Positions 42,323-55,933 of a stretch of DNA of 58,767 bases are shown here, one piece after another. Under the pieces are notes generated by a model. The model made no database searches, had not been told where the DNA came from, and saw nothing but the letters and a program-made list of their open reading frames with translations. Source of the stretch: Oscillospiraceae bacterium (GTDB lineage Bacteria; Bacillota; Clostridia; Oscillospirales; Ruminococcaceae); contig JAFSFT010000010.1 in the NCBI GenBank assembly GCA_017435045.1, positions 1 through 58,767 on the forward strand, read 5' to 3'. The number at the start of each line of letters is the position of its first letter. Position 1 is the first letter of the stretch. Position numbers and translations under genes: made by a program.

Positions 42323-43513
42323 ATGACAAAAATTGACATCTTTTCAGGCTTTCTCGGTGCAGGTAAAACAACACTTATCAAAAAGCTTATTTCCGAAGCT
42401 TATGCAGGAGAAAAGCTGGTGCTTATAGAAAACGAATTTGGCGATATCGGTATTGATGGCGGTTTTCTGCAGGATGCAGGCATAAATATTACAGAGATGA
42501 ACTCTGGCTGTATCTGCTGCAGTCTGGTGGGCGATTTTGGCGAGGCACTCAGAAAGGTGCTGCGTGATTATACCCCTGACCGTGTGGTTATCGAGCCATC
42601 CGGCGTGGGCAAACTCAGCGATGTTATCCGTGCAGTGCAGGATGTAAAAGCGGATGTTACACTCAATGCTATTGCTGCAGTTGTAGACGTAAATAAATGC
42701 AAAATGTATATGAAAAACTTTGGCGAATTTTTCAACAATCAAGTTGAAAGTGCCAATACAATAATCCTCAGCCATACAGGAAAAACTTCTGACAGTAAGC
42801 TGACTGCCTGCGTGGAGCTTCTCCGCAGCCACAATGACCATGCAGATATTCTTACAACCCCTTGGGAACAGCTGACAGGTGCACAGATTCTTGAACTGCT
42901 GGAAAAGAAAAATACGCTTAAAGCAGAACTGGAACAGCTTGCAGGCGAGGTTAAACATCATCACCATCACCACGATGAAGACGGCGGCTGTGAACATGAA
43001 CATCATCATCACCATCATCACGATGAAGACTGTGAACATGAACATCACCACCATCACCACGATGAAAACTGCGACTGTGAACATGAACATCACCACCATC
43101 ATCACGATGAAGACTGTGGCTGTGAACATGAACATCACCACCATCATCACGATGAAGACTGTGACTGCGAACACGAACATCACCACCATCATCATGATGA
43201 ACACTGCGATTGTGGCCATGACCACCATCATCACCATGCTGACGAGGTGTTCACAAGCTTTGGTGCAGAGACAGGCCGCCGTTATACAGCCGAGGAAATT
43301 GCAAACGCACTTTCTGCCCTTGAAGATGAAGAAAAGTACGGCATTATCCTCCGTGCAAAAGGCATTGTAAACGGTACAGACGGATTTATCCACTTTGACT
43401 ATGTGCCAGGAGAACCGGATGTCCGCAGCGGCAGTGCTGCACCAACAGGACGTATCTGTGTTATCGGTGCCGAAATCAACGAAGCAGCAATCAAAGAGCT
43501 GTTCAAACTTTAA
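42323..43513 (+). CDS. G3E-family (CobW/COG0523) GTPase with long His-rich array
   Basis: 396 residues. GTPases of this family insert or chaperone metals such as Zn, Co or Ni. The Walker A is GFLGAGKTT (residues 9-17), the metal-binding CxCC motif is SGCICCSLVG, and VIEPSGVG and ILSHTGKT fit the remaining G motifs. Between residues 212 and 305 is an array of six near-identical units of about 15 residues, each with six or seven His followed by DED, one or two Cys, and EHE. The C-terminal CobW_C domain follows (YGIILRAKGIV). The next gene starts 15 bases later. The His/Cys array is a likely metal store or sensor. Confidence 0.95.
   Translation: MTKIDIFSGFLGAGKTTLIKKLISEAYAGEKLVLIENEFGDIGIDGGFLQDAGINITEMNSGCICCSLVGDFGEALRKVLRDYTPDRVVIEPSGVGKLSDVIRAVQDVKADVTLNAIAAVVDVNKCKMYMKNFGEFFNNQVESANTIILSHTGKTSDSKLTACVELLRSHNDHADILTTPWEQLTGAQILELLEKKNTLKAELEQLAGEVKHHHHHHDEDGGCEHEHHHHHHHDEDCEHEHHHHHHDENCDCEHEHHHHHHDEDCGCEHEHHHHHHDEDCDCEHEHHHHHHDEHCDCGHDHHHHHADEVFTSFGAETGRRYTAEEIANALSALEDEEKYGIILRAKGIVNGTDGFIHFDYVPGEPDVRSGSAAPTGRICVIGAEINEAAIKELFKL
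42956..43237 (+). repeat. Tandem repeat encoding the His/Cys array
   Basis: Six units of 42 to 45 bases plus a partial one, mostly CAT/CAC codons followed by GATGAAGACTGTG and GAACATGAA. The unit sequences are nearly identical at DNA level, pointing to recent expansion. Confidence 0.92.
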
Positions 43514-51418: not shown

Positions 51419-51605
51419 TAGAAATTTCTCATAGTATGTGTGCAAATTGCACAAAAGTGTAGCAGCAAAGATGTTGATTTTATCCAAATTGTAAAGCTGG
51501 TAAAATAAACAAAAATTTTTTAAAAAGTTGTTGACCATACCGGACTTGAATTAATGCGTAATAACACTAATATATTTAATGGAATGTTAAATAGAACCGC
51601 ATCAC

Positions 51606-51634
51606 TTGACACTTTTTTAACTTTGTGCTATGTT
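51606..51634 (+). promoter_or_regulatory. Promoter of the aminotransferase operon
   Basis: TTGACA at 51606-51611, 17-base spacer, TATGTT at 51629-51634; predicted start near 51641. Confidence 0.8.
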
Positions 51635-51655
51635 ATTCTTAATTTAATATTGCTT

Positions 51656-51755
51656 TCTTCACCACCGGGTGGGGACCAAAAGGCATTCAGAGCGTTTCCG
51701 TAGGTACGGCGTATTTTACGTTATAAGGAAAGGCTCTGAGTGCCTTTTACTTTTA
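51656..51755 (+). ncRNA. Candidate riboswitch with intrinsic terminator, leader of the aminotransferase operon
   Basis: A short GC-rich hairpin CCAC/GTGG (51662-51672) is followed by the single-stranded GGGACC (51672-51677). Then a long stem: AAAAGGCATTCAGAGC (51678-51693) pairs with GCTCTGAGTGCCTTTT (51733-51748), with one G-U, and a T-rich tail up to the ribosome site AAGGAGG. Its apical part contains TTTCC/GGAAA, CCGTA-GG-TACGG and CGTA/TACG, i.e. an elaborate, conserved-looking loop rather than a plain terminator loop. A small hairpin in front of a terminator whose loop can contact it is the layout described for the mepA/guanidine-IV class. I cannot confirm identity without a covariance model. 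Confidence 0.65.
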
Positions 51756-51768
51756 AGGAGGAAAACTC

Positions 51769-52902
51769 ATGAAAATCAAACCTTTTGCAGTGGAAGAATG
51801 GATGAACGAATGGGAGGTCGGTGCAAAATACAACATTGCTGAAACTTGTGTGGATTCCGTTTCTCTTAAACAGCTTTTGCAGCTTTGCGGCGAGGACGAA
51901 GCTGTCTTTGTCGATATGCTGCTTTCCAGACGCCTTTCCTATGGCGATATAACAGGTATGCCGAAGTTCAAAGAGGGGGTAAGCAGACTTTATAAAACCA
52001 TCACTCCTGATGAAATTGTGCCTACCCACGGTGCAGCAGGGGCAAACCATCACGTGTTTATGTCCCTTATCTCTGCAGGCGACCACATCATAAGTATTAT
52101 GCCTACCTATCAGCAACTCTACTCCATACCGGAAGCTATGGGTGCAAAGGTGGACATTTTGCAGCTTAAAAAGGAAAACAGCTATCTGCTGGATATAAAC
52201 GAGCTCAAAAGCCTTGTTACACCGCAGACAAAGATGATCTGTGTAAACAACCCAAACAACCCGACGGGTGCACTTATGAGCAGGGAAATGCTGCTGGAAA
52301 TTGTGGATGTGGCAAAAAGTGTTGGTGCATGGGTACTGTGCGACGAGGTTTACCGCCATCTGACCCAGACAGATGTATGGTGCGAATCCATAGTTGATTT
52401 GTATGACAAAGGCATCTCTGTAAGCAGTATGTCCAAGGTGTTCTCCCTTGCGGGTATACGCCTTGGCTGGATTGCAACCCACGACAAAGCTGCTGTGACG
52501 GCAATGCTGTCCCACCGCGACTACAACCTTATCAGCTGCGGTATGCTTGACGAAACAATTGCGGCACTTGCCCTCAGCCACAGCGACAAACTGCTGGCAA
52601 GAAACAGAGCAATTGTGCGCGAAAACCTTGCGGCAGTGGACAGATGGGTTGGCGAAGAAAGCCACGTAAGCTATGTAAAGCCAATGGCGGGCACAACTGC
52701 ACTTATACATTATGACCTTGATATTCCGTCCTATGACCTTTGTGTGGATATGTACAAAAAAACAGGCGCATTTGTAACTCCGGGGGACTGCTTTGAAGAA
52801 GAACACTGCTTCCGTCTTGGATATGCCTGCGACAGCGAAACACTCAGAAACGGTCTTGCGGCAATCAGCGAATATTTTGAACTGGTGACAAAGGGAGAAT
52901 AG
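51769..52902 (+). CDS. Class I/II aminotransferase (capreomycidine-synthase-like)
   Basis: 377 residues, fold-type I PLP enzyme. PTHGAAGANHHVFMSL, NNPNNPTGALM, VLCDEVYR and the PLP lysine in SVSSMSKVFSLAGIRLGW are clear. The N-terminal AVEEWMNEWEVGAKYNIAET and THGAxGAN differ from ordinary aspartate transaminases and match the subgroup that includes capreomycidine synthase (VioD), which acts on hydroxyarginine. First gene of a three-gene operon with an ornithine cyclodeaminase-like and an ArgH-like protein behind a riboswitch-like leader, so a guanidino- or arginine-related substrate is suspected. Confidence 0.9.
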   Translation: MKIKPFAVEEWMNEWEVGAKYNIAETCVDSVSLKQLLQLCGEDEAVFVDMLLSRRLSYGDITGMPKFKEGVSRLYKTITPDEIVPTHGAAGANHHVFMSLISAGDHIISIMPTYQQLYSIPEAMGAKVDILQLKKENSYLLDINELKSLVTPQTKMICVNNPNNPTGALMSREMLLEIVDVAKSVGAWVLCDEVYRHLTQTDVWCESIVDLYDKGISVSSMSKVFSLAGIRLGWIATHDKAAVTAMLSHRDYNLISCGMLDETIAALALSHSDKLLARNRAIVRENLAAVDRWVGEESHVSYVKPMAGTTALIHYDLDIPSYDLCVDMYKKTGAFVTPGDCFEEEHCFRLGYACDSETLRNGLAAISEYFELVTKGE

Positions 52903-52904
52903 TT

Positions 52905-53921
52905 ATGGCAAAGATAAGAGTACTTAATAAGGAAGATATAAAAAAGGTGTTTACACTTGCCGACGCATTAAAGGCGGTGGAACAGGCATACAGCGAAAAG
53001 AACTCGGGCACGGGGGAAATCTGGCCTATGGTTTTCCACGAATTTGAACCCGGCAAGGCTGACCTTGACATCAAATCGGGCAATCTTAACGGCAAGGGTA
53101 TTTTCGGCTTCAAGCTGGTAAGCTGGCACATTGAAAACCGCACAAAAAATCTGCCAACACTACACGGCACAACAATGGTGTTTGATATTGCCAACGGCCA
53201 GCCAAAGGCACTGCTCAATGCAGGGCCAATCACCGACTACCGCACAGGGGCAGCAGGGGCAATAGGTGTAAAATATCTTGCAGACAAGGACGCAAAAAAT
53301 TTGCTTATGGTGGGCTGCGGTGCCCTTGCACCGTATCTTGTTGCGGCAACACTGCTGGTAAAGCCTGATGTGGAAAAGGTTGTTCTTGCAAATCCGCATA
53401 ATCCGTCTGCAGCGGAAGAACGTCTTGGCAGCATAGCAGAAAAGGTGGAAAAACTGCTTAAAGAATCCGGAGCACAGCTCAACTGCACAATCACAGCAGA
53501 AGAAGATATCGAAACAGCGGTCAGAAACAGCAATATTATCCTTACGGCAACACCGTCACGTCAGCCTATGATAAAAGCGGAGTGGGTGCAGAAAGGCACA
53601 CATATCAGCTGTGTGGGTGCAGACCTCAAGGGTAAGCAGGAGATTGACGGAGCAATATTTGCATCGGCAAGAGCCTTTGCCGACGATACCATACAGAGCT
53701 TTGATGTGGGCGAATGTGAAATCCCGCACATTGAGGGTGTGCTCGCAGATCACTGTGGTGAAATCGGTGAGGTTATAAACGGCACAGTGGCAGGCAGGAC
53801 CTCTGCGGAAGACATCACAGTGTTCGACTCCACAGGTATCGCTCTGCAGGACCTTGCTTCAGCGGCGCAGATACTGGAGGCGGCAGAAGAAAATAATATC
53901 GGCACAGTTGTAGAACTGTAA
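52905..53921 (+). CDS. Ornithine cyclodeaminase/mu-crystallin-family NAD(P) enzyme
   Basis: 338 residues, starting two bases after the aminotransferase. Visible: GPITDYRTGAAGAIGVKYLA and the nucleotide-binding LLMVGCGALAPYLV, followed by ILTATPSRQPMI and HISCVGADLKGKQEID. Family members convert ornithine to proline, or reduce imines and oxidise amino acids (alanine dehydrogenase, NAD-dependent opine-like enzymes). Substrate cannot be told from sequence. Its tight linkage with ArgH-like and aminotransferase genes suggests consecutive steps. Confidence 0.92.
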   Translation: MAKIRVLNKEDIKKVFTLADALKAVEQAYSEKNSGTGEIWPMVFHEFEPGKADLDIKSGNLNGKGIFGFKLVSWHIENRTKNLPTLHGTTMVFDIANGQPKALLNAGPITDYRTGAAGAIGVKYLADKDAKNLLMVGCGALAPYLVAATLLVKPDVEKVVLANPHNPSAAEERLGSIAEKVEKLLKESGAQLNCTITAEEDIETAVRNSNIILTATPSRQPMIKAEWVQKGTHISCVGADLKGKQEIDGAIFASARAFADDTIQSFDVGECEIPHIEGVLADHCGEIGEVINGTVAGRTSAEDITVFDSTGIALQDLASAAQILEAAEENNIGTVVEL

Positions 53922-53966
53922 AATCAGCATATACAATCAGAAAAAGCGAAATAAGGAGAATACACA

Positions 53967-55376
53967 ATGGCAAGCTTATGGAGCGGAAGATTTGAAAAGG
54001 ATATGGATGACATCGTAAAGGAATTCAATGCGTCCATACATTTTGATAAAAGAATGTACAATGAGGATATAGACGGCAGCATTGCTCACGTTACAATGCT
54101 GGCAAAGCAGAAGATTGTATCCGAAGAAGACAAAGAAAAAATTATAAGCGGACTTGAAGAAATCCGCAGAGACATTGCAGAGGGCAAAATTATTTTTACC
54201 ACCGAGGATGAGGATATCCACATGGGTGTGGAAAAACGTCTGATTGAGCGCATCGGCGACGTGGGCAAAAAACTGCACACCGCACGCAGCCGCAATGACC
54301 AGTGTCAGACCGATACAAGGCTGTATCTGCGCAGGGAGATGCGGGAAATTCTCGGGATGCTTTGTGAATTCGAGAGGATTATCCTGCGCAAGGCGGAGAA
54401 ATATGCAGACACAATAACTGTGGGCTTCACCCATCTGCAGCACGCACAGCCTGTAACCCTGGGCTTTATGTTTATGGCATATTTCCAGATGTTTAAAAGA
54501 GATATGGAGCGGTTGCAGGATGCCCTTGAAAGAATGAATGTAAACCCTCTTGGTGCCTGTGCAATGGCAGGCACAACACTGCCGACCGACCGCCACTACA
54601 CAAGCGAATTGCTTGGGTTTAAAGCCCCTTGTGAAAATGCAATGGACGTGGTGGGGGACAGAGATTATACAATCGAGTTTTTAAGCGTGGCATCAATGTC
54701 CATGATGCATATTTCCCGCTGGGCAGAGGAATTTACCTGGTGGAACTCAACAGAGTTTTCCTACATAGCAATCGACGACAGCTACTGTACAGGCAGCAGC
54801 ATTATGCCGCAGAAGAAAAATCCTGACATTGCGGAGCTTCTCCGTGGAAAGGTCGGCCGTGTGTACGGACATCTTATGCAGATGCTCACGGTGATGAAAG
54901 GCACGCCTTTGTCCTTCAACAAGGATTTTCAGGAGGATAAGGAAAGCCTGTTTGATGCCATTGACACCTGGAAAGCCAGCATAAAAATATTTGCAAAGAT
55001 GCTGGATAAAACCGAGTTCCGTATGGACATGATAGAAGCACAGCTTGACAAGGGTTTTCTCAATGCCACCGACATTGCCGAACATTTTGTAATGCAGGGC
55101 ATACCGTTCAGGGAAGCCCACTCCATAGTAGGCAGAATGGTAAAGCTGTGCGAAAAGAAAAACTGCGGCTTTGAACAGCTGACCGATGAGGACCTGCATG
55201 GTATTGACGCAAGAATTACAGTGCAGTCTCTTGGAGATATCAGCATAAAAGGGTGTGTGGAAGCACGCAAATCCTACGGCGGCACAGCACCTTGCGAAGT
55301 GTTAAGACAGATAGAAGCAGGCAGAACCTGGCTGTCTGGTTATACAAAGACAACATCCGAAAGTATCAATGTATAA
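53967..55376 (+). CDS. argH: Argininosuccinate lyase-like protein
   Basis: 469 residues, fumarase/aspartase superfamily. HTARSRNDQCQTDTRLYLR, GFTHLQHAQPVTLGFM and the signature GSSIMPQKKNPD are all present, and the C-terminal KSYGGTAPCEVLR is as in true ArgH. ArgH splits argininosuccinate into arginine and fumarate. No argG, argF or other arginine gene is near, and the gene is third in an operon with a PLP aminotransferase and an ornithine cyclodeaminase homologue. It could be a genuine ArgH or a lyase for a related guanidino-succinate type compound. Ribosome site AAGGAG. Confidence 0.9.
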   Translation: MASLWSGRFEKDMDDIVKEFNASIHFDKRMYNEDIDGSIAHVTMLAKQKIVSEEDKEKIISGLEEIRRDIAEGKIIFTTEDEDIHMGVEKRLIERIGDVGKKLHTARSRNDQCQTDTRLYLRREMREILGMLCEFERIILRKAEKYADTITVGFTHLQHAQPVTLGFMFMAYFQMFKRDMERLQDALERMNVNPLGACAMAGTTLPTDRHYTSELLGFKAPCENAMDVVGDRDYTIEFLSVASMSMMHISRWAEEFTWWNSTEFSYIAIDDSYCTGSSIMPQKKNPDIAELLRGKVGRVYGHLMQMLTVMKGTPLSFNKDFQEDKESLFDAIDTWKASIKIFAKMLDKTEFRMDMIEAQLDKGFLNATDIAEHFVMQGIPFREAHSIVGRMVKLCEKKNCGFEQLTDEDLHGIDARITVQSLGDISIKGCVEARKSYGGTAPCEVLRQIEAGRTWLSGYTKTTSESINV

Positions 55377-55564: not shown

Positions 55565-55933
55565 TTTGGAACTGTTGGTGATGTTGCTCACAATATCGAC
55601 CGTCGTTTGAGAGAAATAGACTTTGGCATTTTTGAGATGAAGAGTTATAATGAGTTAAAGGATACTGCCGAATATCAGCAGTGGCTGAATGGCGACAACT
55701 ATACCAACGTTGCTCCAAAAGGCGAAAGCGGGTCACAGATGGAAAAACGGGTGCTTGCGGCGTTAAGAGATGTTGCTGCAAGCGATAAAGACACTGTGAT
55801 TATCACCCACGGCGGTGTTATTGCCACAATAATGGCAAACTTATTTAATAACGAAAACAAAAACAGATATCAGTGGCAGCCAAAGTGCGGACACGGATAT
55901 CTGTTAGAAAATGATAAATATTATATTCTGTAA
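55565..55933 (+). pseudogene. Histidine phosphatase, 5'-truncated
   Basis: The frame opens after a TAA at 55562-55564 and reads HNIDRRLREIDFGIFEMKSY and later VIITHGGVIATIMANLF, the second half of a phosphoglycerate-mutase-like phosphatase. The N-terminal RHG motif with the catalytic histidine is missing, and no start with a ribosome site exists except a TTG inside the remnant. From 55377 to 55564 nothing else is recognisable. Confidence 0.75.

What the first reader, a model, noticed from the sequence alone, without database searches (positions are those of the whole stretch)
51641..55376. Riboswitch-like terminator leader controlling an aminotransferase / ornithine cyclodeaminase / ArgH-like operon
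Seen: consensus promoter, then a short GC hairpin, a long 16-bp terminator stem whose apical region holds two further small stems, then a strong ribosome site and three tightly packed genes. The lyase has all ArgH signatures but no argG, argF or carbamoyl-phosphate gene is near, and the first enzyme resembles the capreomycidine-synthase subgroup. Known: a small hairpin plus structured terminator is the layout of the mepA/guanidine-IV riboswitch class. Inference: the operon handles a guanidino compound (for example a guanidine- or arginine-derived succinate adduct) and is switched by its ligand.
Basis: partly seen in the sequence, partly recalled or inferred. Interest (0 to 1): 0.85.

Follow-up and report, generated by a model that had tools for sequence, protein, structure and literature searches.

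The report
Variant guanidine-IV riboswitch before lyase operon
A conserved folded RNA, belonging to a published riboswitch-like family whose trigger molecule is unknown, sits in front of three enzyme genes of a gut-type bacterium; one enzyme looks like the last step of arginine synthesis, yet the gene for the step before it was not found in any of 16 genomes of the genus, which is a fresh clue to the unknown molecule.

Summary
The leader (51655-51755) folds far better than shuffles (z -7.3) and recurs before related genes. No Rfam 15 riboswitch family matched, but neither did one match the MATE- and PnuC-linked guanidine-IV-like leaders found here, so that negative says nothing. The match is to Gd4v, a published variant of guanidine-IV riboswitches with unknown ligand, most often found before this transaminase family (PRK07324; PMC9788692). 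The window has both features the authors call strict: an extra hairpin and, at the position I infer, no G. Twenty leaders covary strongly (26 of 37 pairs changed on both sides). So the guanidine-IV comparison was right, but this is the variant reported to bind guanidine weakly or not at all. New here: the operon adds an argininosuccinate-lyase-like enzyme, although argG is over cut-off in 0 of 16 genomes of the genus; this lyase forms a divergent clade with an antiporter-linked sister. Other Gd4v leaders precede N-acetyltransferases, MATE, a LysO-type exporter and a tRNA-editing protein, which suggests defence against a guanidino amino acid. Ligand and lyase reaction remain unproven.

The parts
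51606..51634 (+). promoter-like site TTGACA-17-TATGTT
   Evidence: consensus match only
51655..51755 (+). Gd4v-type leader RNA (whole motif with terminator)
   Evidence: covariance model R1 108.8 bits (the window was one of its 5 training rows); homologous leaders; fold z -7.28
51656..51675 (+). P1 hairpin, loop ACCG (51664-51667); ACC 51664-51666 can pair with GGU 51703-51705 (kissing loop)
   Evidence: (sequence-only alignment): 5 inner pairs 97% of cells paired, 4 of 5 changed on both sides; 3 outer pairs only 48%, where gaps spoil that alignment; model-fitted alignment 97% for all 8. Kissing pairs 98% paired but nearly invariant in the 20, so no covariation support
51678..51748 (+). P2, the terminator stem, with conserved loop GUAGGUAYGG
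   Evidence: 15 of 21 pairs changed on both sides, 89.5% of cells paired
51709..51721 (+). apical hairpin on P2 (Gd4v feature D2)
   Evidence: 5 of 5 pairs changed on both sides, 98% of cells paired
51724..51724 (+). U at the position inferred to be Gd4v feature D1 (G in guanidine-IV)
   Evidence: third base before the 3' strand of the upper P2 stem is not G in 19 of 20 Gd4v leaders (L253 has G); by eye from the sequences it is G in 5 of 5 MATE/PnuC leaders. Placing D1 here is my inference, the figure is not held
51756..51761 (+). Shine-Dalgarno sequence AGGAGG
51769..52902 (+). PLP enzyme of family PRK07324 (377 aa)
   Evidence: 521 bits, cut-off 476; GntC 273 bits and VioD 226 bits, both below cut-off; closest solved chains 3op7 then 8fft
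52905..53921 (+). ornithine cyclodeaminase / mu-crystallin family protein, probably an NAD(P)H imine reductase (338 aa)
   Evidence: best models archaeal alanine dehydrogenase and iminosuccinate reductase, all below cut-off; PF02423
53967..55376 (+). argininosuccinate-lyase-like enzyme of a divergent clade (469 aa)

Best explanation
The leader is a Gd4v-type riboswitch candidate, the variant sister of the guanidine-IV class. Without ligand the 16-bp stem completes and terminates transcription. With ligand the P1 loop ACC kisses the P2 loop GGU, the stem cannot complete, and the PLP enzyme, imine reductase and lyase are made. Shown here: membership in the motif, and conservation of P1, P2 and the apical hairpin by covariation. 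Taken from published work on relatives: termination control, probably as an ON switch, and poor guanidine binding. Inferred: that the ligand is a guanidino amino acid or close derivative, and that the operon metabolises it, the lyase working outside arginine biosynthesis by removing or adding fumarate.
For: Leader homologues before the same enzyme family. Of 20 aligned leaders 15 lie outside R1's training rows, 42-80 bits. Covariation on a sequence-only alignment: 26 of 37 pairs, score 0.544 against at most 0.211 with slid partners, 0 of 500 shuffles. Both strict features of Gd4v in the window (PMC9788692). First genes behind the 20 leaders: PRK07324 6, other class I aminotransferase 2, GNAT 7, MATE 3, LysO-type 1, tRNA editing 1. 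argG over cut-off in 0 of 16 genomes of the genus while 5 of 16 hold an ASL over cut-off.
Against: No binding or transcription data for this leader. The kissing pairs hardly vary among the 20. L253 has G at the inferred D1 position, and L041, a PnuC leader, has an apical hairpin, so the two kinds are not cleanly split here. The U-run is imperfect. The lyase is in only 2 of 20 Gd4v operons (two congeneric genomes, proteins 97% identical), so it may be incidental to the ligand. PMC9788692 reports that arginine, agmatine and canavanine were ruled out for the leaders tried.
Confidence: 0.82

Rival explanations
1. A plain guanidine-IV riboswitch sensing free guanidine, with the operon handling guanidine stress.
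For: Same P1 loop and a GUAGGU core like that of guanidine-IV-type leaders; R1 also matches MATE- and PnuC-linked leaders.
Against: The apical hairpin and the U at inferred D1 match Gd4v; in print this transaminase is never behind guanidine-IV, and Gd4v leaders bound guanidine weakly (1 of 3) or not (2 of 3) (PMC9788692). The MATE/PnuC leaders score 29.5-38 bits against 42-115 for the 20 kept; two degenerate Gd4v-like leaders (L267, L268) also score only 30-35, so bits alone do not decide.
Confidence: 0.08
2. An ordinary arginine-biosynthesis operon: the lyase is ArgH and the leader answers to arginine.
For: argH model 587 bits, far over cut-off; positions T155, H156, S277, K283, N285, E290, aligned with catalytic residues recalled for duck delta-2 crystallin, are kept.
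Against: No argG over cut-off in any of 16 genomes of the genus and no OTC over cut-off in the own genome; the lyase sits in a 7-row clade (100/100) on a very long branch from 30 family ArgH; Gd4v leaders tested in print did not bind arginine.
Confidence: 0.06
3. A constitutive attenuator or a protein-bound leader without small-molecule sensing.
For: No ligand is known for any Gd4v leader beyond weak guanidine binding; strong terminator stem.
Against: Invariant loop nucleotides (C12, G14, C45, G46, A48 to A52 in 20 of 20) and homology to a proven ligand-binding class; several unrelated gene families behind it.
Confidence: 0.04

Closest known systems
Gd4v motif (guanidine-IV variant; Lenkeit et al. 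2022, PMC9788692)
   Same: Two hairpins, possible kissing loops, terminator as second hairpin, apical hairpin D2, no G at inferred D1, upstream of PRK07324; the paper also notes COG2423 genes in the operon.
   Different: The window operon adds an argininosuccinate-lyase-like gene; the main text has no such word (supplements not read). LysO-type and tRNA-editing genes, seen here behind other leaders, were not found in the main text either (word search).
Guanidine-IV riboswitch (mepA / GGAM-1; PMC7736828)
   Same: Two hairpins with the same P1 loop and a similar P2 loop; terminator control.
   Different: Extra apical hairpin; U instead of G at inferred D1; enzymes rather than exporters behind it.
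Argininosuccinate lyase ArgH
   Same: Fold family, catalytic His and Ser loop, argH model over cut-off.
   Different: Divergent clade; F317 where the duck delta-2 crystallin chain has Y323; no argG partner found in the genus.
GntC / capreomycidine synthase
   Same: Nearest named models to the PLP enzyme after PRK07324 (273 and 226 bits).
   Different: Both below their curated cut-offs (415, 390.9); no arginine hydroxylase was sought.

Membership tests
Gd4v motif | hairpin P1 plus terminator hairpin P2 | tested here: met
[quoted passage not shown]
   98% of cells paired, 5 of 5 pairs changed on both sides; 51709-51721
Gd4v motif | D1: not G | tested here: met
   U at 51724; 19 of 20 leaders not G. 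The position is inferred from the paper's text, not from its figure
Gd4v motif | D3 and D4 patterns | not testable with these tools
   given only in the paper's figure, which is not held
Gd4v motif | upstream of a PRK07324 gene (over 50% in print) | tested here: met
   521 bits, cut-off 476
Gd4v motif | pseudoknot between P1 and P2 loops | tested here: inconclusive
   98% of cells can pair, but the pairs almost never vary
Guanidine-IV riboswitch | G at D1 | tested here: not met
   U at 51724 (position inferred)
Guanidine-IV riboswitch | no apical hairpin D2 | tested here: not met
Guanidine-IV riboswitch | binds guanidine at about 0.06-0.21 mM | not testable with these tools
   no wet experiment; values from PMC11611296 and PMC7736828
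ArgH (arginine biosynthesis) | argH model over curated cut-off | tested here: met
   587 bits, cut-off 279.5
ArgH (arginine biosynthesis) | argG in the genome | tested here: not met
   best 32.6 bits, cut-off 268.2; 0 of 16 in the genus; own genome 86% complete
ArgH (arginine biosynthesis) | groups with ArgH of the same bacterial family | tested here: not met
   7-row clade apart from 30 rows, 100/100; the 30 were the best-scoring ArgH only

The most novel reading that the evidence does not exclude
Gd4v riboswitches sense a toxic guanidino amino acid of plant food, for example gamma-hydroxyarginine (the GntC substrate, present in lentils) or a cyclised product of it, and switch on a defence set: acetylation, export, tRNA editing, and in the window a degradative pathway in which the PLP enzyme and imine reductase work on the carbon chain and a re-purposed argininosuccinate-lyase relative makes or breaks a fumarate adduct of the guanidino group.
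Probability: 0.17. Interest if true: 0.78.

Novelty: new member of a known kind. Interest (0 to 1): 0.52.

Why it matters
The ligand of Gd4v was open in the one paper on the motif that the library searches found. The window gives an operon with three enzymes, one of whose known relatives act on guanidino-succinate bonds, in a genus where its usual partner was not found. Purifying three proteins and testing one panel of guanidino amino acids makes the ligand question directly testable. Rfam 15 at gathering score gave no riboswitch match to this leader, to four other Gd4v loci or to five guanidine-IV-like leaders (the one riboswitch match is a SAM-I element elsewhere in L003), so annotation that relies on it overlooks such RNAs.

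Tried and rejected
Rfam at gathering score and, for 51500-51800, at E up to 10: no riboswitch family; the best was a microRNA model with E 0.09, taken as chance. The control (5 MATE/PnuC leaders and 4 Gd4v loci) gave no match to those leaders either, so the negative was discarded. A 14-base core pattern in viral contigs hit 120 stretches, the list cut at its limit; not examined, taken as chance. A gapped pattern gave 2 loci that by eye do not fold like the motif. blastn of the leader against plasmids: no match. PRK07324 genes without the leader: searches gave 7 of 297 and 7 of 391 positive genomes (own genome in both); among them R1 matched only the window and G031, but in G232 the contig ends at the gene, so nothing can be said there. 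In 5 of these genomes (G215, G553, G629, G430, G365) an OCD gene lies next to the enzyme. The idea that the lyase is the housekeeping ArgH was dropped. The R-to-H change in LQRAQP was given little weight because the duck chain has K there. No structure prediction was run.

Rows left out before counting: one search also listed L043 (30.1 bits); it has no ACCGG near the hit and was left out of all later sets. Alignment A3 had 30 rows: 20 forward leaders of 42 bits or more were kept; left out were 5 MATE/PnuC leaders, 2 degenerate ones (L267, L268) and 3 reverse-strand self-matches. Of the 20, window and L002 are near-identical. Before counting pairs I replaced three inner MFE pairs (GUA/UAU) by the three kissing pairs.

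Full report
1. What is in the sequence. The leader lies between a promoter-like site (51606-51634) and a strong ribosome site (51756-51761). It folds into an 8-pair hairpin P1 with loop ACCG and a long terminator-type stem P2 that carries a further hairpin (-51.4 kcal/mol, z -7.28, 0 of 200 shuffles as low). Three genes follow with gaps of 2 and 45 bases. By profile they are a PRK07324 aminotransferase, an OCD/mu-crystallin family protein and an argH-model lyase. The model search listed one forward leader of this kind in the own genome; its second hit there is the reverse strand of the same place.

2. Homologous leaders. A scan of one genome for each of 84,980 species with the aminotransferase, a method that finds close relatives only, gave 5 loci. 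Four of the five (L002, L003, L004, L005) have the same leader before the gene; L006 does not. Close homologues of the window's second and third genes lie next to the enzyme only in L002. A covariance model (R1) from the window and these four was run over 297 genomes of the window's family (6 with a match, own genome included), 398 of the phylum (3, own included) and 397 of another family, f31 (16). The draws may share genomes.

3. Two kinds of match. Twenty leaders score 42 bits or more, 15 of them outside the training rows. Five weak matches (29.5-38 bits) precede PnuC-type (L041, L042) or MATE (L044, L046, L047) transporters. PnuC and MATE are the transporter families newly named for guanidine-IV in PMC7736828 (passage); MATE is also found behind Gd4v, so the gene alone does not decide. 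Four of these five share the P1 loop ACCG; L044 has GCCG with GGC instead of GGU in its P2 loop, which keeps the kissing pairs. Three of five have UAGGU in the P2 loop, L044 UAGGC, L046 CAGCU. Rfam finds none of them, so its silence on the window means nothing.

4. Identification. PMC9788692 (abstract, introduction, results and discussion read) describes Gd4v, a variant of guanidine-IV: same two hairpins, pseudoknot and terminator. Two features strictly separate the set before PRK07324 from the guanidine-IV set before exporter genes: D1, always G in guanidine-IV and never in Gd4v, and D2, an extra hairpin on the terminator hairpin. Gd4v precedes a transaminase in over 50% of cases, and COG2423 genes can be in the operon. 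The figure is not held. I place D1 at the third base before the 3' strand of the upper P2 stem: there 19 of 20 leaders do not have G, and by eye 5 of 5 MATE/PnuC leaders do. L253, before a different aminotransferase, has G. The window has U there and the D2 hairpin. L041, a PnuC leader, also has an inserted hairpin, so D2 alone does not decide.

5. Covariation. On a sequence-only alignment of the 20 leaders (A5), 26 of 37 pairs have changes on both sides, 89.2% of cells pair, score 0.544; partners slid by 1-3 columns give 0.084-0.211; 0 of 500 shuffles reach the score. The model-fitted alignment gives 30 of 37 and 0.634, but leans towards the structure. Inner P1, P2 and D2 are each supported. 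The three outer P1 pairs are paired in only 48% of cells on the sequence-only alignment, where loop-side gaps break the register, against 97% for all of P1 on the fitted one. The kissing pairs ACC/GGU pair in 98% of cells but hardly vary: plausible, not shown. Relatedness of rows inflates the shuffle comparison.

6. How it should work. For guanidine-IV, ligand promotes a kissing interaction that stops the terminator from completing (PMC11611296 and PMC12186494, passages; PMC7736828, parts 2-4 of 6 of its main section). For Gd4v the authors saw only the terminated product without ligand (2 constructs), guanidine binding that was weak in one leader and absent in two, even weaker binding of methyl- and hydroxyguanidine, less terminated but no full-length product with guanidine in one construct, and no reporter response to 5 mM guanidine (PMC9788692). 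For the window this mechanism is inference from homology.

7. What the Gd4v genes say. First genes behind the 20 leaders: PRK07324 in 6 (window, L002, L252, L004, L005, L254; model hits for window and L254, 70-97% identity to the window for the rest), another class I aminotransferase in 2 (L025, followed by PRK07324; L253, whose fourth-best NCBIfam model is GntC, below cut-off), GNAT in 7, MATE in 3, a LysO-type exporter (PF03956) in 1, an aminoacyl-tRNA editing domain (PF04073) in 1. OCD follows in 3 of the 6 PRK07324-first operons, the lyase in 2 of the 20. Acetylation, export and tRNA editing fit a toxic amino acid. In print, a canavanyl-tRNA deacylase often under guanidine riboswitches links guanidine sensing with the arginine mimic canavanine (PMC10018355, passages), and a Gd4v-linked GNAT acetylates agmatine and, less well, arginine and canavanine, none of which was the ligand (PMC9788692). 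One of the PLP enzyme's nearest named relatives, GntC, is named for (S)-gamma-hydroxy-L-arginine. Gamma-hydroxyarginine and homoarginine are reported in lentil (PMC11854323, PMC6769807, passages). That makes gamma-hydroxyarginine a testable candidate, no more; I could not read which compounds had been tested.

8. The lyase. argG is over cut-off in 0 of 16 genomes of the genus (best 21-33 bits, cut-off 268), including the 7 that are at least 90% complete and at most 5% contaminated. In the own genome no OTC passes (155 bits, cut-off 281). Yet 5 of 16 hold an ASL over cut-off, and two of these, G000 and G1070, hold two. The five are 76-87% complete, so absence in any one of them is weak; absence in all 16 is stronger. 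Each of the five has an ASL followed directly by a PF03553 antiporter-family gene; only G000 and G1070 also have the Gd4v-linked one, with the leader found in G1070 too. The 2 Gd4v-linked and 5 antiporter-linked lyases form a clade (100/100) on very long branches from 30 ArgH of the family. Those 30 were the best-scoring of the matches in 120 of 148 genomes, which may exaggerate the gap; an argG start motif (recalled) lay within 1.5 kb of 11 of the 30. Aligned catalytic positions are kept; F317 stands where the duck delta-2 crystallin chain has Y323 (the catalytic list and that Y323 touches the substrate are recalled). So the lyase probably still makes or breaks a fumarate adduct, but of a substrate not made by ArgG.

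9. Novelty. The RNA is a new member of a published orphan class. New in what I could search: the lyase in such an operon, its place outside arginine biosynthesis, and LysO-type and tRNA-editing genes behind other Gd4v leaders. The main text of PMC9788692 has no 'argininosuccinate', 'lyase', 'tRNA' or 'editing'; its supplementary gene tables could not be read and may hold some of this. 'Gd4v' and 'PRK07324' listed one relevant paper. 'argininosuccinate lyase' with 'riboswitch' found 20 papers, 15 listed; by title none is about this, and I read passages of one of them.

Noticed in passing
G000 contig 70, L038:6091-9046: A second divergent argininosuccinate-lyase-like gene directly before a PF03553 antiporter-family gene; the same pair in each of the 5 congeneric genomes with an ASL over cut-off.
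   Followed up: partly
L264:499-1212: Gd4v leader before an aminoacyl-tRNA editing (PF04073) protein.
   Followed up: partly
L263:1698-2748: Gd4v leader before a LysO-type (PF03956) exporter gene.
   Followed up: partly
L041:1501-1611: PnuC-linked guanidine-IV-like leader that also carries an inserted apical hairpin, blurring the D2 distinction.
   Followed up: no
L044:1501-1591: MATE-linked leader in which P1 loop GCC and P2 loop GGC both differ from ACC/GGU yet still pair, one hint of covariation in the kissing loops.
   Followed up: no
L267:7989-8089: Degenerate Gd4v-like leader with a shortened P2 loop and no same-strand gene within about 1 kb downstream.
   Followed up: no
L003:5796-5891: SAM-I riboswitch between the Gd4v-controlled aminotransferase and the next gene, metK by reading, so the two look separately controlled.
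   Followed up: no
42323-43513: GTPase of CobW type (by reading) with many HHHHHH/DED repeats, a likely metal-binding stretch.
   Followed up: no
55607-55933: Short phosphoglycerate-mutase-like ORF that seems to lack its N-terminal half (by reading).
   Followed up: no
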